Origin: Kingella negevensis
GTDB lineage: Bacteria; Pseudomonadota; Gammaproteobacteria; Burkholderiales; Neisseriaceae
Length of the DNA stretch: 64,000 nucleotides
Direction of reading: 5' to 3'
NCBI RefSeq assembly: GCF_030177895.1
Contig: NZ_CP123448.1
Span: forward strand, 372,001 to 436,000
The position numbers and the translations under genes are program-made. The notes beneath the pieces are model-generated. The model was not told the origin of the DNA. It saw nothing but the letters and a program-made list of their open reading frames with translations, and did not search any database. Shown here one piece after another: positions 5,084-47,009 of this stretch. Numbering within the stretch: the stretch's first letter is position 1; every line of letters begins with the position of its first letter.

Positions 5084-6712
5084 ATGATTTCTACTAATAA
5101 CATCACAATGCAATTCGGCGTAAAGCCCTTGTTTGAAAACGTATCCGTGAAATTCGGCGAAGGCAATCGCTACGGCTTAATCGGTGCGAACGGTTCGGGC
5201 AAATCCACATTCATGAAAATTTTGGGCGGCGATTTGGAGCAAACTTCGGGCGAAGTCGCGATTGAGAACGGCGTGCGTTTGGGTAAATTGAAGCAAGACC
5301 AATTTGCTTACGAAGACATGCGCGTGTTAGATGTCGTGATGATGGGACACGTTGAAATGTGGGCGGCGATGACCGAACGTGATGCGATTTACGCCAATTT
5401 GGAAGCCACTGACGAAGACTACATGAAAGCCGCAGATTTAGAAGCCAAATTCGCCGAATACGATGGCTACACCGCCGAAGCGCGTGCAGGCGAATTGCTG
5501 CTGGGTGTGGGCATTGAAGAATCTTTGCACAACGCGACCATGGCAGAAGTGGCTCCGGGGTTTAAATTGCGTGTATTGTTGGCACAAGCCTTGTTTTCCA
5601 AACCAGATGTTTTGCTGTTGGACGAGCCTACGAATAACTTGGACATTAACACGATTCGTTGGCTGGAAAACATGTTGAATCAATATGATAGCACCATGAT
5701 TATCATTTCCCATGACCGCCACTTTTTGAACGAAGTTTGCACCCACATGGCGGATTTGGATTACAACACGATTACGATTTACCCTGGTAATTACGATGAT
5801 TATATGTTGGCATCGGCTCAATCGCGTGAACGTGCGATGAAAGATAATGCCAAAGCCAAAGAAAAATTGCAAGAATTACAAGAATTTGTGGCGCGTTTCT
5901 CTGCAAACAAATCCAAAGCGCGTCAAGCAACCAGCCGCCTGAAACAAGCCGACAAAATCAAAGCGGAAATGGTGGAAGTCAAACCTTCTACCCGTCAAAA
6001 TCCGTTTATTCGCTTTGAAATGGACGAGAAAAATAAATTGCACCGTCAAGCCGTTGAAGTGGAAAATTTGGCGAAATCGTTTGATAAGACATTGTTTGAA
6101 AAGCTGTCTTACATTATGGAAGCAGGTCAGCGTTTGGCGATTATCGGCCCGAATGGTTCGGGTAAATCCACGTTGTTGAAATTGTTGGCAGGCGCGTTCA
6201 ATCCCGAATATGCAGATGGTGTTACGCCTGATGCTGGCACGATTAAATGGGCGGAAAAAGCGACAGTCGGCTACTATCCGCAAGACCACGAAAAAGATTT
6301 TGATTGCGATATGGATTTGAGTGAGTGGATGCGCCAATGGGGTCAGGAAGGCGATGATGAACAAGTGATTCGCGGCACGTTGGGGCGTTTGTTGTTCGGC
6401 AGCAATGACGTGGTGAAAAAAGTGAAAGTGTTGTCGGGTGGCGAAAAAGGTCGTATGTTGTATGGCAAACTTTTGTTGTTGAAAACCAATGTGTTAATCA
6501 TGGACGAGCCGACTAACCACATGGACATGGAAAGCATTGAATCGCTGAACATGGCGTTGGAAAAATACAAAGGCACGTTGATTTTTGTGTCGCATGACCG
6601 TCAATTTGTGTCGTCTCTTGCCACGCAAATTATTGAATTGGACGGCAAAGGTGGTTATGAATATTACTTGGGCGATTACGAAAGCTATTTGGCGAAAAAA
6701 GGCGTGGAGTAA
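5084..6712 (+). CDS. ybiT: ABC-F family ATPase YbiT
   Basis: This 542-residue soluble protein has two ATP-binding domains. The first has Walker [10 protein letters not shown] (about residue 34), the divergent signature [15 protein letters not shown], and Walker [12 protein letters not shown]. The linker is [19 protein letters not shown]. The second has [18 protein letters not shown] and [11 protein letters not shown]. Opening [20 protein letters not shown] closely follows E. coli YbiT. ABC-F proteins lack membrane domains and act on the ribosome, relieving stalled translation. It is a single gene: a DUS lies upstream, and TTACAAT at about 5037 may be part of its promoter. A DUS-pair terminator follows. 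Confidence 0.93.
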
Positions 6713-6762: not shown

Positions 6763-6817
6763 TATAGTTCATGCACATTTTTTAATACAAGGCGACAACG
6801 GGTGCCGTGTACGAATA
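6763..6817. mobile_element. Half of a Correia-like miniature element (MITE), cut by the IS630-type element
   Basis: It begins TATAGTTCATGCACATTTTT, then ATACAAGGCGACAACG and GCCGTGTACGAATA, i.e. the left terminal repeat and the centre of the Correia-like elements seen elsewhere (compare 40732-40842). It stops abruptly at a TA where the IS630-type end begins, so the IS appears to have inserted in its centre. Confidence 0.65.
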
Positions 6818-7190
6818 TATAGTTAATTAAAACAAAAATAGGACAGTAACGCATCTGTGAAATTATTATAACTAGGCAAAATTGAACGCATATATTTCTT
6901 AATATTTGCCCATGTTTTTTCTATTGGATTTCATTCAGGCGAATAAGGTGCAAGCGGTAGCATTTTATGCCCCAAATGGTGCACCATTTCTTGCAGAATA
7001 CCCATTCTGTGGAATCTGGCATTATCCAAAATAATCAATGACTTTTCGGGTAAATTGGGCAATAGCATAGTTTCAAACCATGCTTCAAAAAAATCGCTGG
7101 TCATTGTATTTTGATAAATCATTGGCGCAATTAAATTTTGCCCAATTTGCGCTGCAACTCATGATAAGCGTTGGTATTTTCTACTGTCAG
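6818..7190 (-). pseudogene. IS630-type transposase remnant (DDE_3 domain)
   Basis: The minus strand reads VAAQIGQNLIAPMIYQNTMT, then SDFFEAWFETMLLPNLPEKS, IILDNARFH (second catalytic Asp in LDNARFH), MLPLAPYSPE and NPIEKTWANIKKYM (the catalytic Glu). These are hallmarks of IS630/Tc1 transposases. A TGA interrupts SPE-NPIE, where Leu is expected, and another TGA precedes VAAQ. The N-terminal half is missing. The gene ends about nine bases from the outer end TATAGTTAATTAAAACAAAA at 6818. Upstream it is fused to a broken hsdS gene, so this copy is immobile. Confidence 0.82.
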
Positions 7191-7819
7191 TCCCTATTAT
7201 TGCCACTTTTGCTAACGTTTTCCACTGCACATTGCAGCCTGAAAACGGATTTTTAGGGTGTTCATAATCCAGCAGTAAATCTCTGTAATACGTGTATTGT
7301 TTCTTCCGCAACGTTAGCTCTGTAAACGTGTCCAACATGCTGGCAATTTTTTTGCTGAACGTGAAGCGGTGGAATGGGGACTAAAAATTTATCCGTGTCA
7401 GGTGTGGCAATTTGCGGCATTTGCATTTTGGAACTCAATTTCTGAAAGTGCGGTTCATGTTGCTTCAAAAAATAATAGATAAATTTAGTGTCAATTTGTT
7501 CGTTTGTTGAGTGATACGCCCACATTTCGCTTTTGTGTGAAAAAGGTTGGTCGTAATACTCAAATTCAATAAAACCACGCGATTTCACAATGATAGACGG
7601 CTGATTTTGAATGTCTTTGCTGGGTATATCCGCGTAGTCCACAAAAGCAACCGTTTTGCCGCCCGCAAAAATTTTAACGGGTGCGTTCTCTTTGTGCAGT
7701 TCCTTCATTTGTCCCGCCGTGATTTTTGTCCCTTTGGTGCGTCTCAATATCTCGCTCAATGGCTTCCATTCCACCTTCTCGCCTTGTAGCAATTTAGCCA
7801 AAAATTTATTCATTTGCAT
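7191..7819 (-). pseudogene. hsdS: Type I restriction specificity subunit (HsdS), frameshifted and truncated
   Basis: From the ATG at 7819 (AAGGACAAA upstream) the protein reads VEWKPLSEILRRTKGTKIT through a first target recognition domain to [14 protein letters not shown] run of seven A (minus strand; 7347-7353) shifts the frame. Using six A restores [20 protein letters not shown] and [11 protein letters not shown], the conserved helical spacer, and then [10 protein letters not shown], the start of a second recognition domain. There the gene breaks off into the IS630 remnant. HsdS selects the DNA target of HsdM/HsdR, but neither partner is in the window. The upstream in-frame extension to 7873 is probably not translated. 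Confidence 0.8.
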
Positions 7820-7851
7820 AATTTTGTCCTTATTTGTATTTTCAGGCTGCC

Positions 7852-9366
7852 TTAACGCATCACATTCGCCCAATCCGCCTCAAAATACGCCACCAATTTC
7901 TGATTATTCAAATAATTCGGCTCCATTTTCCGCCGTGCCATATCCGCAGGAAAACGAAACATCTGCGCCAATTCCGTCGCATTCAAAAACCGCGTCGGCA
8001 CATCAATTTTTTCAGGCAGCCTGAAATCATCTGCCGCGCTTGCCAACACATAACCCCACTCGCCAAAACTCGGCACATACACATGATACGGCGCAGTTTT
8101 TAGCCCCGCTGCTTCCAAAGTTGCCACCACTGACCAAAACGCATTCGGCGCAAAATAAGGCGACGTGGATTGCACCACCATCTTGCCACCGCCATTTAAA
8201 TGCCGCGCCACCAAGCGATACATCGGCACGGAATACAGTTTCCCGAGCGAAAAATTAGACGGGTCAGGCAAATCCACAATAATCACATCAAACTTCTCTG
8301 CCGAGCGCTCCAACCACTTTGCCGCGTCATCGTTAATCACGCGCATTTTCGTGTTATTCAAGGAATTGTGATTCAGCGCGACCAACTTGGCAGATGTGCG
8401 AAATGTTTTCGTCATATCAGGGTCTAAATCCACTAGCGTAACTTGTTGAACTTGCGGATATTTCAACACTTCACGCGCCGCCAAACCATCGCCGCCGCCC
8501 AAAATCAACACGCGCCCTTGTTGTGCTGACATCTGCATGGCTGGCATCACTAACGCTTCGTGATAACGCGCTTCATCACGCGATGAAAATTGCAAATTGC
8601 CATTAATATACAATCGCGTATCGTCTTTCCATTGTGTTACAACTAAACGCTGATACGGCGAATGGCTCTCAAACACTACAGGGTCGCCAAAATAACGCTG
8701 TTCCGCTTGGAAAACCCAACGATTGGCAAACACAAACGCAATCGCCAAGCCTGCCAAAACCGCGTAGCCACGCCATTTCAGGCTGCGATAATTGGGCAAA
8801 TGCAGCCTGAAAACACGCGCCGTTAAAACCGCCACCGCCGCATTCAGTAAACCAAACAGCAACGCAGAACGCGCCATGCCCAATTTTGGTGCAAGAATCA
8901 GCGGAAACAGCAGCGAAACGGCTAATGCGCCCATGTAATCAAACGTCAGTACACGCGAAACGGTGTCTTTAAATTCAAGCTGTTGCTCGTTTAACACGCG
9001 CATTACCAACGGTATTTCCATGCCAACGACTGTGCCGATGATGAACACTAACCCATAAAGCAGCGTGCGAAACGGTGCAGCCGCCACGCCAAACGCGGTA
9101 AACAAAAACAGTGCGGATAAACCGCCAATCAAGCCGACCAGTAGCTCAATTTCTACAAAGCGCGTCAGCACGTCTTCATCTTTGATGTAGCGTGTGAGAT
9201 GTGCGCCAATGCCCATGGAAAATAGGTATAAGCCGATGATGAGTGAATATTGGAAAATGCTATCGCCGAGCAGATAACTGGCAAGTGCGGCGGTAATTAG
9301 CTCGTATGCTAAGCCGCAACTGGCGACGATGAAGACGGAAATAATGAGCGTGCGATGGGATTTCAT
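7852..9366 (-). CDS. Polyamine aminopropyltransferase-like protein with N-terminal membrane domain
   Basis: About 504 residues from ATG 9366 (MKSHRTLIIS); the longer reading upstream runs through DUS and repeat DNA and is unlikely. Residues 1 to about 215 form seven or so membrane helices. The C-terminal half is a spermidine-synthase-type methyltransferase fold with VLILGGGDGLAAREVL (SAM-like ligand loop), TLVDLDP, and VIIVDLPDPSNFSLGKLYS. This architecture is the membrane-anchored SpeE-like family common in proteobacteria. Transfer of an aminopropyl group to putrescine is the family reaction, but the real substrate is not shown here. It lies downstream of the MoxR/DUF58 pair on the same strand. 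Confidence 0.78.
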   Translation of the reverse strand: MKSHRTLIISVFIVASCGLAYELITAALASYLLGDSIFQYSLIIGLYLFSMGIGAHLTRYIKDEDVLTRFVEIELLVGLIGGLSALFLFTAFGVAAAPFRTLLYGLVFIIGTVVGMEIPLVMRVLNEQQLEFKDTVSRVLTFDYMGALAVSLLFPLILAPKLGMARSALLFGLLNAAVAVLTARVFRLHLPNYRSLKWRGYAVLAGLAIAFVFANRWVFQAEQRYFGDPVVFESHSPYQRLVVTQWKDDTRLYINGNLQFSSRDEARYHEALVMPAMQMSAQQGRVLILGGGDGLAAREVLKYPQVQQVTLVDLDPDMTKTFRTSAKLVALNHNSLNNTKMRVINDDAAKWLERSAEKFDVIIVDLPDPSNFSLGKLYSVPMYRLVARHLNGGGKMVVQSTSPYFAPNAFWSVVATLEAAGLKTAPYHVYVPSFGEWGYVLASAADDFRLPEKIDVPTRFLNATELAQMFRFPADMARRKMEPNYLNNQKLVAYFEADWANVMR

Positions 9367-13525: not shown

Positions 13526-14380
13526 ATGAAAAAACTCAAATCTCTTAAACAGCTTATCAATAAAACCCTGTCTGTACTCAACCGTTTAGACGCAATTTTG
13601 CCGCCCGAATCCGTTGAACCTGATTGGCAAAACACCGTTGCGTATCGCTGGCAACGTGCAGGCAATTCAGGCGTGTTGCACGGATTGCCGCGTCCGCACA
13701 CGTTTCCTTTGTCGCGTTTGGCGGCGGTAAACACGCAACTCACGCGCTTGGTTCGCAACACGGAACAGTTTTTGCACGGCAAGCCTGCCAACAATGTTTT
13801 GCTGACGGGGGCGCGTGGCACGGGCAAATCATCGCTGGTGAAAGCCTTGCTGCACGAATATGCGGAGCAAGGTTTGCGCTTGATTGAAGTCGATAAAAAC
13901 GACTTGGCAACTTTGCCAGCCTTGTTGTGCGTGTTGGAATCGCGCTCTGAAAAATTTATTGTGTTTTGTGATGACTTGTCTTTTGAAAACGGCGAAGATG
14001 GTTACAAAGCTCTGAAAACCGCGCTAGACGGCAGTTTGTCGCGCCGCGCAGAAAATGTGCTGGTGTACGCCACTTCCAATCGCCGCCATTTGATGCCTGA
14101 ATTTATGAATGATAACGTGGGCAACGGTGGCGAAATCCATGCAAAAGAAGCGGTGGAAGAGAAAGTGTCGTTGTCTGACCGATTTGGTTTGTGGTTAAGT
14201 TTTTATCCGTTTGACCAAAATGAATATTTGGCGGCGGTTGAAAATTGGTTGGCGGAATTTGATTTGCCGTTAGATGACGCGGCACGAGTGGCAGCGTTGC
14301 AGTGGGCGCAAATGCGTGGCAGTCGCTCGGGGCGCACGGCTTATCAGTTTGTTTGTGATTGGGTGGGACAGCATAGTTGA
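13526..14380 (+). CDS. DUF815-family P-loop ATPase
   Basis: A 284-residue AAA-type protein. Walker A is LLTGARGTGKSSLVKALL, Walker B-like IVFCDDLSFE, and sensor VLVYATSNRRHLMPE; the C-terminal DRFGLWLSFYPFDQNEYLAA is typical of DUF815 proteins. Function is not established; the family is widespread in proteobacteria. A DUS (13512-13523) lies immediately before the ATG, with no clear Shine-Dalgarno. The last codons, HS plus TGA, lie inside the Correia-like element at 14373, so the 3' end of this gene was supplied or altered by that element. Confidence 0.82.
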   Translation: MKKLKSLKQLINKTLSVLNRLDAILPPESVEPDWQNTVAYRWQRAGNSGVLHGLPRPHTFPLSRLAAVNTQLTRLVRNTEQFLHGKPANNVLLTGARGTGKSSLVKALLHEYAEQGLRLIEVDKNDLATLPALLCVLESRSEKFIVFCDDLSFENGEDGYKALKTALDGSLSRRAENVLVYATSNRRHLMPEFMNDNVGNGGEIHAKEAVEEKVSLSDRFGLWLSFYPFDQNEYLAAVENWLAEFDLPLDDAARVAALQWAQMRGSRSGRTAYQFVCDWVGQHS

Positions 14381-14477
14381 TTAAAATATCAATGATACCG
14401 CGTTGCCAACGTCCTTATGTGCTACTCGCACACGGCGGACGTTGTCGCCTTGTCTCATTTTCATTTTAATTAACTAT
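14373..14477. mobile_element. Correia-like miniature element (105 bp)
   Basis: Left end CATAGTTGATTAAAATATCA, right end (complement) TATAGTTAATTAAAATGAAA. The interior carries GCGTTGCCAACGTCC and GGACGTTGTCGCC in inverted orientation. No coding capacity. Same family as 21687, 29472 and 46890. It overlaps the stop codon of the DUF815 gene. Confidence 0.85.
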
Positions 14478-14514
14478 AAAAAAAGCAGCCTGAAAAGTTT
14501 TCAGGCTGCTTTTT
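14478..14514. terminator. DUS-pair terminator between DUF815 gene and BI-1 gene
   Basis: AAAAAAGCAGCCTGAAAA and TTTTCAGGCTGCTTTTT with minimal loop, between convergent genes. Confidence 0.85.
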
Positions 14515-19621: not shown

Positions 19622-19729
19622 TAAGGGTGGCGAGCCTAACCCTCGGCACTGACTTTTCCAAGTGGGCTGCTAGCTTCCGCTCCTGACCCGTTGCTCAAAA
19701 TCATCATGCGAGGAGACCCGCCGTGAAAC
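19622..19729 (-). ncRNA. ffs: 4.5S RNA (bacterial small signal recognition particle RNA)
   Basis: The minus strand contains GGGTCAGGAGCGGAAGCTAG then CAGCCC (19662-19689), the universally conserved SRP RNA tetraloop and asymmetric-loop region that binds Ffh. The flanks GGCGGGTCTCCTCGC and GAGGGTTAGGCTCGCC pair to close the long helix. A good promoter lies just upstream and a terminator downstream. The ends are estimated, to within about 10 bases. Confidence 0.9.
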
Positions 19730-21335: not shown

Positions 21336-22204
21336 CTATTTGATAAATTTTAATATTTGTGAAATATACCCTAGTTTAACAAAATTTTCAGCAGATAAAT
21401 TCGTCTGCTCAAAATCTTTTGCTAAACGTCGAGACCAACCTAACCATGCAAACGTTCGTTCTACAATCCAACGTTTGGGCAGAATATGCCAAGAAATATC
21501 TTGAATTCTCTTTGAAATCTCAACAGTTAAACCCAATTGCTCTGATACTTCACGCTCAAATGTATTCCGATAACCTGCGTCCGCACAGAAACCTTTTAAA
21601 CTCGGATAGGTCTCAAACGCTTTTTTTGCTACAAAAATACCTGCTTTTGTGTCATGAATATTGGCTGCATGAACCACAACAGACAATATAGTGAATTAAA
21701 TTTAGATTAGTACAGCGTTGCCAACTCCCTTATGTACTAGGTGTACACGGCGGTCGTTGTCGCCTTGTCCTAATCTAAATTTAATCCACTATAGATTACC
21801 CAACGTATCAACAGCTATATGTCGCTTACGACCTTTGATTTTTTTACCTCCATCAAAACCTTTATCATGTGCGCTAGAAGCTGTTTTGACACTTTGTGAA
21901 TCAAGAATGGCATAAGTTGGCATTGCTTGTTTTTGATGGATTAAACGTTTTTTTGAACCAATGCCAAAAGAATTCTATCCCATAAGCCTGATTGATTGGC
22001 TCTGCGATAGAAACTCCATACGGTTGAATAAGGTGGAAAATCATTGGGCAGCATACGCCATTGGCAACCTGTTTTGGTGATGTACAAAACGGCATTCACT
22101 AATTGACGTTTATCCCATTTGTAGTGGCGTAGCTGGTTAAAATATGGCTCAATCGCTTGCCATTGGGCATCGGTTAAGTCTGTTGGGTAGGATTTTCTAG
22201 TCAT
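21336..22204 (-). pseudogene. IS5-type transposase (orfA/orfB), split by a Correia-like element
   Basis: orfA starts at 22204 (MTRKSYPTDLTDAQWQAIEP) and ends about 87 codons later. At 21953-21947 the minus strand has A-AAA-AAC, a canonical -1 slippery heptamer. Shifting -1 continues as [20 protein letters not shown] (first catalytic Asp), then [15 protein letters not shown]. There the element at 21687-21793 introduces a stop. Beyond it, LSVVVHAANIHDTKAG, GFCADAGYR (second Asp) and WIVERTFAWLGWSRRL (Glu) complete the DDE triad. Apart from the insertion, the gene looks intact, about 254 residues as the fusion. Confidence 0.85.
21687..21793. mobile_element. Correia-like miniature element inside the IS5-type transposase gene
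   Basis: Ends TATAGTGAATTAAATTTAGA and (complement) TATAGTGGATTAAATTTAGA, interior GCGTTGCCAACTCCC and CGTTGTCGCC. Deleting it with one TA copy restores GGTAATCTATTGTCTGTT, i.e. G-N-L-L-S-V, the uninterrupted transposase. This marks the exact target (TA) and the direction of events: IS first, MITE second. Confidence 0.93.
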
Positions 22205-29471: not shown

Positions 29472-29578
29472 TATAGTGAATTAAATTCAAATCAGGACAA
29501 GGCGACAACGCCCGCCGTGTACGCGTGGTACATAAGGGCGTTGGCAACGCTGTACTGGTTTGAATTTAATTTACTATA
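29472..29578. mobile_element. Correia-like miniature element (107 bp)
   Basis: Ends TATAGTGAATTAAATTCAAA and (complement) TATAGTAAATTAAATTCAAA; interior GGACAAGGCGACAACGCC, CCGTGTACG, GCGTTGGCAACGC. The right end forms ACTATAATGG, a potential -10 box reading out towards 29600. Intergenic insertion. Confidence 0.9.
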
Positions 29579-40731: not shown

Positions 40732-40842
40732 TTAATGATTTGCAGCTATCTTTTGCTACGGTGTTGCCAACGCTCTTATATACTATTCGTACACGGCGAG
40801 CGTTGTTGCCTTGTATCAAAAAATAATTACACCAACTATAAA
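40732..40842. mobile_element. Correia-like miniature element, divergent subtype
   Basis: Right end (complement) TATAGTTGGTGTAATTATTT then TTGATACAAGGC; the interior has GTTGCCAACGCTC, CGTACACGGCGAGCGTTG. The left end (about 40732) is worn but matches the end of 31745-31816 over ATCTTTTGCTACGG. Lies between ntrY and the next repeat. Confidence 0.75.
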
Positions 40843-46873: not shown

Positions 46874-47009
46874 GTGCGCCCGATGTATTTATAGTTGATT
46901 AAAATTGCAATGATACAGCGTTGCCAACGTCCTTATGTGCTATATGCACACGGCGGACGTTGTCGCCTTGTCTCATTTTTATTTTAATCAACTATATTAT
47001 CGGGCGCAC
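46874..47009. other. 11-bp hairpin whose loop is split by a Correia-like element
   Basis: GTGCGCCCGAT (46874-46884) and ATCGGGCGCAC (46999-47009) are perfect complements. Removing the element 46890-46996 with one TA leaves an 11-bp stem with a loop of about 9 bases (GTATTTATT), placed like a terminator downstream of the SirB2 gene. Confidence 0.75.
46890..46996. mobile_element. Correia-like miniature element (107 bp) in a hairpin loop
   Basis: Ends TATAGTTGATTAAAATTGCA and (complement) TATAGTTGATTAAAATAAAA; interior GCGTTGCCAACGTCC and GGACGTTGTCGCC. Flanked by the 11-bp inverted arms described separately. Confidence 0.92.

What the first reader, a model, noticed from the sequence alone, without database searches (positions are those of the whole stretch)
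6818..7190. IS630-type remnant shares its terminal sequence with the Correia-like elements: candidate autonomous partner
The outer end of the transposase remnant reads TATAGTTAATTAAAACAAAA, and the transposase gene would stop nine bases inside it. The Correia-like element ending at 14477 starts (complement) TATAGTTAATTAAAATGAAA: the first 15 bases are identical, and a GACA follows a few bases later in both. IS630 elements also target TA. I infer that this transposase family mobilises, or mobilised, the miniature elements. Correia elements are described as miniature elements (MITEs) with TA duplication, and to my knowledge their source transposase is not settled.
Basis: partly seen in the sequence, partly recalled or inferred. 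Interest (0 to 1): 0.78.

Follow-up and report, generated by a model that had tools for sequence, protein, structure and literature searches.

The report
Likely transposase source of Correia elements
A dead transposon fragment in this bacterium belongs to a family of small jumping genes whose complete copies in related bacteria carry much the same end sequences as the abundant, engine-less Correia elements, making that family the best candidate for the engine that moved them.

Summary
Window 6818-~7184 (-) is the 3' part of an IS630-family transposon (82% DNA identity to the N. animalis copy) with two in-frame stops. Its outer 28 bp match the R ends of two window Correia-like MITEs at 24 of 28 positions, in register.

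Of 52 complete IS630 copies recovered from 55 Neisseriaceae loci, 38 carry this 28-bp end: T at position 25 of L (AGTACA), G of R (AGGACA). MITEs show the same asymmetry: 86 of 93 scored (45 of 47 in two contiguous 400-kb stretches) have one G end and one T end. In 83 genomes, end patterns without the next MITE core base are mostly IS-like (49 of 54 R-type, 53 of 68 L-type). Genome G083 shares a lineage-specific end change between IS and MITEs.

The remnant also abuts half a MITE (6763-6817), consistent with insertion at the MITE's central TA; two other genomes show the same site.

Against: some MITE-rich genomes hold no detectable IS630, MITE ends do not generally track the resident IS, the MITE core is unrelated to the IS, and nothing shows transposition. 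One 2010 paper already calls Correia elements IS630-derived. The specific partner is what appears new.

The parts
6818..7184 (-). IS630-family transposon remnant, 3' part only (about IS nt 544-905); DDE_3 domain; two in-frame stop codons; 5' half lost at an hsdS-like pseudogene
   Evidence: blastn 82% to the N. animalis IS over 7179-6818, 75.8% to the G083 IS over 7184-6818; tblastn 77% to P0002 residues 156-282; Pfam DDE_3 E 1.1e-17
6818..6845 (+). R terminal inverted repeat of the IS (28 bp, TATAGT..ATTAAA....AGGACA); first TA = target copy
   Evidence: same kind of end in complete copies of related genomes; 24 of 28 identical to two window MITE ends
6763..6817 (+). left half of a degenerate Correia-like MITE, apparently cut at its central TA by the IS insertion
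   Evidence: 26 of 32 positions match the intact MITEs; alignment to the degenerate MITE at ~40748-40840 up to the centre CCGTGTACGAATA
14372..14478 (.). 107-bp Correia-like MITE, GAGACA/GATACC type; R end on the - strand at 14478
21687..21793 (.). 107-bp Correia-like MITE, AGGACA/AGTACA type
29472..29578 (.). 107-bp Correia-like MITE, AGGACA/AGTACA type
46890..46996 (.). 107-bp Correia-like MITE, GAGACA/GATACA type; R end on the - strand at 46996
40748..40840 (-). degenerate fifth MITE with a readable centre; R-side end at 40840, the other end only approximate
7195..7833 (-). hsdS-like (type I restriction specificity) pseudogene at which the lost 5' side of the IS ends
   Evidence: Pfam Methylase_S E 3.3e-9 for ORF 7262-7873; the adjoining 59-aa ORF has no Pfam hit and is called hsdS by eye only

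Best explanation
The Correia-like MITEs are non-autonomous passengers of a Neisseriaceae clade of IS630 (Tc1/mariner-like) insertion sequences. The ~905-bp IS encodes a DD34E transposase, in several copies split over two overlapping frames. By inference, this transposase binds a 28-bp end (TATAGT..ATTAAA....A..AGKACA), cuts at the outer TA and inserts at TA with a 2-bp duplication. The MITEs keep the same kind of end in the same L/R polarity (AGTACA / AGGACA), so the same transposase could pair and move them. The window copy is a dead 3' relic that most likely landed in the central TA of a MITE. Shown: shared ends, shared end asymmetry, TA target of the IS, family-restricted distribution, nested insertions. 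Inferred: transposase binding and mobilisation in trans.
For: End identity beyond chance: the IS-end consensus finds 49 (L) and 21 (R) places at >=21/28 in 400 kb of G083 and 10 and 41 in G029, against 0 in one Markov sequence each. At >=19/28, 57 of 76 paired hits in G029 and 44 of 90 in G083 are 102, 107, 152 or 157 bp apart. Asymmetry: 38 of 38 main-clade IS have T at position 25 of L and G at 25 of R. 86 of 93 MITEs have one G end and one T end, after 27 of 120 candidates were dropped for lacking AC at 26-27; 19 of the 93 come from loci fetched with a pattern that fixes G at one end, but the two contiguous stretches alone give 45 of 47 (25 of 72 dropped; 48 of 72 without that filter). Exclusivity: end patterns lacking the next MITE core base in 83 genomes gave 54 R-type (49 IS-like by sequence, 4 MITE variants, 1 unassigned) and 68 L-type (53 IS-like, 15 MITE-like), reversed-pattern controls 0. 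Of 30 R-type loci examined, 21 abut a transposase frame. Lineage-specific change: C at position 12 in 24 of 26 G083 MITE ends against 1 of 146 elsewhere; the IS L ends of G083 (5 of 5) and G067 (7 of 7) carry it. TA duplication: the flanks of IS L074, joined with one TA, give 242 bp at 98.8% of another IS copy. Co-occurrence: MITEs in 12 of 12 genomes with main-clade IS against 24 of 71 without (Fisher 1.3e-5; >=5 MITEs within 53 nearer genomes, 10 of 12 against 13 of 41, p 0.002). MITE pattern in 7 of 349 order genomes, all seven also in the family set.
Against: G034 has 218 MITE matches and no DDE_3 match; 7 of 12 MITE-bearing genomes searched show none. One of the seven, G003, does carry IS630 pieces, and drafts can hide copies (many G037 IS ends sit at contig edges). 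MITE ends are not closest to their own genome's IS in general. G052 and G039 MITEs carry AGGACA-type ends while their resident IS630 ends differ at 22-28. Type-1 MITE R ends differ from the G029 IS R end at positions 7, 8, 15, 17, 21, 22, and the MITE core is unrelated to the IS interior. Two published CREE insertions were at CA, not TA (PMC2649163, passage). Only 10 of 52 IS copies have MITE sequence within 120 bp, none of the 9 in G018. The Fisher tests ignore phylogeny. No transposition was observed.
Confidence: 0.8

Rival explanations
1. The MITEs descend from, and are moved by, another still unknown TA-targeting transposon whose ends are closer to the Correia repeat; the IS630 clade seen here is a cousin sharing ancestral ends.
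For: Recurrent differences between IS and MITE ends (positions 7-8, 15-17, 21-22); MITE-rich genomes with no DDE_3 match, e.g. G034; resident IS630 of G052 and G039 differs from their MITEs.
Against: No other long element with these ends was recognised under two strict patterns in 83 genomes: the non-IS-like hits read as MITE variants, plus one unassigned solo end in G051 (contexts checked for 30 R-type loci and not for the L-type hits). The G083-specific end change is shared with the IS.
Confidence: 0.13
2. The IS1106 (IS5-family) transposase mobilises Correia elements, as proposed in a 2009 review.
For: Stated in PMC3898611 from similarity to the N-terminal part of the IS1106 transposase gene (passage).
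Against: Correia elements are described with TA duplication (PMC3898611, passage) and often inserted at TA (PMC2649163, passage), the IS630 target. The end patterns recovered IS630 as the long element. Similarity to a gene could simply reflect insertion in or next to it (inference). IS1106 ends themselves were not compared here.
Confidence: 0.03
3. The shared ends reflect selection for promoter/IHF/RNase III functions of an AT-rich TATA motif, not a common transposase.
For: Correia elements carry promoter sequences (PMC10969869, passage), at their ends (PMC9778887, passage).
Against: Does not readily explain the in-register AGGACA/AGTACA asymmetry at positions 23-28 in both, nor the joint lineage-specific change, nor the near-restriction of the ends to two element types.
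Confidence: 0.03

Closest known systems
IS630-Spn1 / RUP pair of Streptococcus pneumoniae
   Same: Related transposases: the two streptococcal IS630 proteins aligned are 54% identical to the N. animalis protein, and listed proteins named IS630-Spn1 match the window remnant at 57-62%. A 107-bp MITE with TIRs like the IS and TA targets (PMC2229807 and PMC3049150, passages).
   Different: Different hosts. The streptococcal IS and RUP sequences were not compared here letter for letter.
Correia elements / CREE / NEMIS of Neisseria
   Same: The published repeat TATAG[CT]GGATTAAATTTAAATCAGGAC / ...CCGGTAC (PMC2649163, passage) matches the AGGACA/AGTACA-type MITEs of this window and its relatives; 107 and 157 bp are the commonest lengths found.
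   Different: Two of the four intact window MITEs have a second end type (GAGACA/GATAC), also seen in G005 (C. steedae), G012 (N. animalis) and G029.
IS630 family (Tc1/mariner superfamily), e.g. ISY100
   Same: DDE_3 plus HTH_Tnp_IS630 domains in P0002, TA target duplication, overlapping frames at an A7G run.
   Different: A clade with its own 28-bp asymmetric ends, found here in Neisseriaceae; no characterised element name was assigned. ISY100 is named from an abstract in a search listing, not compared.

Membership tests
IS630 insertion-sequence family | DDE_3 catalytic domain and IS630-type HTH domain | tested here: met
   Relative P0002: PF13358 E 2e-25, PF01710 E 6.8e-24. The remnant has DDE_3 only, its 5' half being lost.
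IS630 insertion-sequence family | Insertion at TA with TA duplication | tested here: met
   Nested IS in IS: joined flanks 242 bp at 98.8% across the junction with one TA. The 52 elements start and end in TATA (one in TATT...AATA, C. steedae), partly by construction of the search.
IS630 insertion-sequence family | Terminal inverted repeats | tested here: met
   L and R ends of 52 elements.
Correia-type MITE (window elements) | ~107 or ~155 bp, 26-28 bp inverted repeats starting TATAG, core GACAAGGCGAC...GCGTTG | tested here: met
   Four 107-bp elements, one starting CATAG; pattern in 36 of 83 family genomes, reversed control 0.
Correia-type MITE (window elements) | TA target duplication | tested here: inconclusive
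   Element ends carry TA; a MITE inside a gonococcal IS630 lies at a TA, with the far copy read as TG. No empty site was sought or available for the window copies.
IS/MITE partnership (RUP-like) | MITE ends match IS ends in sequence and L/R polarity | tested here: met
   general per-genome matching not met.
IS/MITE partnership (RUP-like) | Transposase binds and moves the MITE | not testable with these tools
   Needs an experiment.

The most novel reading that the evidence does not exclude
This IS630 clade is the long-missing driver of Correia elements throughout Neisseriaceae, and the MITEs double as landing pads for it: its copies hit the MITE's central palindrome TA (window, G029, G002) or terminal TATA, while MITEs in turn land in and break the IS (gonococcal copy). 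Such mutual nesting would help kill the driver, leaving driverless Correia populations in species such as the gonococcus.
Probability: 0.35. Interest if true: 0.72.

Novelty: new member of a known kind. Interest (0 to 1): 0.6.

Why it matters
Correia elements make up about 2% of the meningococcal genome (PMC3898611, passage) and carry promoters, IHF sites and RNase III sites (PMC10969869 and PMC2649163, passages). Yet held papers leave their mobiliser undetermined (PMC2649163) or propose IS1106 (PMC3898611). A 2022 survey of gonococcal and meningococcal mobile elements lists IS5, IS30, IS110 and IS1595 but never mentions IS630 (PMC9778887, passages). Pointing to complete, multi-copy IS630 elements in relatives gives a concrete enzyme and concrete substrates, so the question becomes a simple test in laboratory E. 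coli.

Tried and rejected
A scan of genome contigs and one of viral contigs with the remnant protein found no relatives, and phage records gave no DNA match. A second genome-contig scan with an alignment gave 3 loci, which opened the 83-genome family search. Own-genome searches were not possible.

Rejected: the end at 6818 as mere leftover of a neighbouring MITE. The neighbouring MITE half is real, but the end is the IS's own. Rejected as a general claim: MITE ends tracking the resident IS in every genome. The identity matrix shows no general diagonal; G083 (24 of 26 ends) and one N. animalis MITE share lineage-specific letters with their IS. The co-occurrence test counts G037 as IS-bearing because IS ends sit at contig edges; other drafts may hide copies too. 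Three of 55 loci gave no element under the end patterns (L077, L016, L089) and are left out of the 52. Reading frames were inspected in five elements only: three have the clean two-frame layout, those of G083 and G012 do not, so 'complete' here means both ends present, not a working gene.

Literature: Buisine 2002 was not looked up by id (seen only as a citation); Siddique 2011, Siguier 2014 and Delihas 2011 were looked up and are not held, so prior naming of this partner there cannot be excluded. Searches made.

Full report
What is there. On the minus strand at 6818-7184 lies the 3' part of an IS630-family transposon. It aligns to nt 544-905 of the 905-bp N. animalis element (locus L017, genome G012, named by its contig length) at 82%, and its translation aligns to residues 156-282 of the transposase P0002 at 77%, with two in-frame stops. 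The Pfam hit is DDE_3 (E 1.1e-17). Beyond about 7184 the sequence is an hsdS-like pseudogene (Methylase_S), so the 5' half and L end of this IS are gone. The transposase stop codon lies inside the terminal repeat (6823-6825), as it does in complete copies. The window has four 107-bp Correia-like MITEs (14372, 21687, 29472, 46890) and a degenerate fifth ending at 40840.

The end match. The first 15 bases are identical between 6818 and the MITE end at 14478. Over 28 bp the remnant matches the R ends of two MITEs at 24 of 28 positions and the other six window MITE ends at 19-22. Of four IS copies compared with the window by blastn, all four find the remnant and one (N. animalis) also finds two MITE R ends. 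The published Correia repeat, TATAG[CT]GGATTAAATTTAAATCAGGAC (PMC2649163, passage), has AGGAC at the same distance from the end.

Complete relatives. A profile of six IS630 transposases hits 27 of 83 genomes of the family of N. elongata. From 55 loci in 12 genomes, 52 elements with both ends were recovered (898-918 bp). In 38 of them (seven genomes) the L end has T at position 25 (AGTACA in 31, GGTACA in 7) and the R end has G at 25 (AGGACA in 37, AAGACA in 1). One (C. steedae) has GGCACA/AAGACA. Thirteen (G022, G052, G039) share roughly the outer 20 bp but not positions 22-28. Frames were inspected in five elements: all five hold an A7G run where two frames overlap, and three (G029, G018, N. 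elongata) show a clean 129/197-aa pair, while the G083 and G012 copies do not. The layout fits a programmed -1 frameshift (inference). The catalytic aspartate and glutamate of ILDNARFH and NPIEK in P0002 are spaced as DD34E (counted on the sequence).

MITE asymmetry. MITE candidates picked by an inverted-repeat search requiring TA[TC]AG[TC] ends number 120. 27 were dropped for lacking AC at positions 26-27 at one end. Of the remaining 93, 86 have G at position 25 at one end and T at the other, as the IS does. 19 of these 93 come from single loci fetched with a pattern that fixes G at one end. In the two contiguous 400-kb stretches (G083, G029), which are free of that bias, the figures are 45 of 47 with 25 of 72 dropped, or 48 of 72 with no filter.

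Exclusivity. Two strict patterns for the end, written to exclude the next base of the MITE core, were run over 83 genomes. The R-type gave 54 matches: by sequence, 49 IS-like, 4 MITE variants and 1 unassigned in G051. The L-type gave 68: 53 IS-like and 15 MITE-like. Reversed-pattern controls gave 0 (the sorting by sequence is my reading of the listings). Of the 30 R-type loci fetched, 21 abut a transposase frame, 3 are cut by a contig end, 1 reads by eye as IS DNA without a significant protein hit, 4 read as MITE variants and 1 is unassigned. The contexts of the L-type matches were not checked one by one. In contiguous 400-kb stretches, matches of at least 21/28 to the genome's own IS ends number 49 and 21 (L and R, G083) and 10 and 41 (G029), against 0 in one Markov sequence each. 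At 19/28 or more, 57 of 76 paired hits in G029 and 44 of 90 in G083 have spacings of 102, 107, 152 or 157 bp.

Lineage-specific letters. In G083 the IS L end reads ATTCA at positions 9-13 and the R end GTTAA. 24 of 26 MITE ends there have C at 12, and the other two read GTTAA; elsewhere 1 of 146 MITE ends has C at 12. One N. animalis MITE shares TTTAA with its IS L end. Against this, a full identity matrix shows no general own-genome preference, and in G052 and G039 the resident IS630 ends differ at 22-28 from those of their MITEs, which read AGGACA.

Nesting and target. An IS copy inside another IS copy (L074) gives, with flanks joined and one TA kept, 242 bp at 98.8% of an IS across the junction: direct evidence of exact ends and TA duplication. 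In G029, copy L015 lies inside a 157-bp MITE at its central TA, with 151 bp at 98% across the junction. In G002 the left flank of a copy stops at the same central TA; its right flank was not seen. In the window, 6763-6817 aligns with the MITE left half up to CCGTGTACGAATA; the degenerate MITE at 40840 continues there with GTATATAAG, while the window continues with the IS end. So the window remnant most likely is an IS that hit a MITE centre. Over all 52 copies, 10 have MITE sequence within 120 bp of the insertion point: 6 of 9 in G029, 3 of 4 in G012, 1 of 5 in G083, and none of the 9 in G018 or the 25 in the other seven genomes. Of the 9 G029 copies, 1 is inside a MITE and 2 sit at a MITE's terminal TATA. 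Detected MITEs hold 3.5% of TAs in the sampled 400 kb, so 3 of 9 or more has binomial p 0.003, or 0.02 if the MITE share is doubled; this test was chosen after seeing the data. Conversely, a Correia element sits in a gonococcal IS630 copy at a TA: the left flank aligns to IS positions 213-92 and the right to 91-2.

Distribution. The MITE pattern occurs in 36 of 83 family genomes and in 7 of 349 genomes of the order, all seven also in the family set. Close IS630 transposases (E <= 1e-45) occur in 2 of 349, both in the family. MITEs are present in 12 of 12 genomes that I scored as holding main-clade IS and in 24 of 71 others (Fisher 1.3e-5). Among 53 genomes nearer by the ABC-F gene, at least 5 MITEs are found in 10 of 12 against 13 of 41 (p 0.002). 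These tests ignore phylogeny. G034, with 218 MITE matches, has no DDE_3 match; of 12 MITE-bearing genomes searched, 5 have one and 7 do not, though one of the seven, G003, holds IS630 pieces. Draft assemblies hide IS copies: in G037 many IS ends lie at contig edges. The window's own genome is not held. The nearest held genomes are 86% identical at the ABC-F gene 5084-6712 (G083, G066, G067), so the window is most likely from Neisseriaceae.

How it likely works. By IS630/Tc1-mariner precedent (general knowledge), the transposase binds the terminal repeat, cuts at the TA and joins to a new TA. Shown here: ends, polarity, TA target of the IS, nested insertions. Inferred: binding of the MITE ends and mobilisation in trans. 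The MITE core is unrelated to the IS interior, so the MITEs are not simple internal deletions of the IS seen.

What is known. The IS630-Spn1/RUP pair is the closest precedent (PMC2229807 and PMC3049150, passages). A 2010 paper lists Correia elements among IS630-derived MITEs, citing Buisine 2002 (PMC2817692, passage), so the family-level idea is in print. A 2009 genome paper says the mechanism is undetermined and notes two insertions at CA (PMC2649163, passages), a 2009 review suggests IS1106 (PMC3898611, passage), and a 2024 MITE review never mentions IS630 (PMC10969869, term count). Among the papers found by seven searches and looked into by passages, none names this IS as the partner; most listed papers were seen as listing and abstract start only. 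Siddique 2011 is not held, and Buisine 2002 was seen only as a citation.

Verdict. Observation confirmed and interpretation supported with qualifications. A new IS/MITE pair of a known kind, and a testable answer to an old question.

Noticed in passing
window 7195-7833 (-): hsdS-like type I restriction specificity pseudogene, frameshifted, at which the IS remnant ends; its hsdM/hsdR partners were not looked for.
   Followed up: partly
window 6763-6817 and 40748-40840: Two degenerate MITEs with the same diverged end (ATTTTTTnATACAAGG), probably older than the four intact ones.
   Followed up: partly
G022, G052, G039 (loci L021, L023, L022): A sister IS630 group with other subterminal sequence (e.g. 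GAATTC / CTACGTAG in G022) in place of AGKACA; whether it has its own MITEs is unknown.
   Followed up: no
G051:C1:2498669 (L210:1501): Solo IS630-type end (TATAGTTAATTAAAATAAAAACAGGACAC) with no transposase hit in its 3-kb locus and no MITE core next to it.
   Followed up: partly
L001 3317-3470: A 154-bp Correia element inserted at a TA in a gonococcal IS630 copy; the 2.17-Mb record, filed as a plasmid in PLSDB, has chromosome size.
   Followed up: yes
window 19626-19722 (-): Bacterial small SRP RNA (RF00169), ordinary.
   Followed up: no
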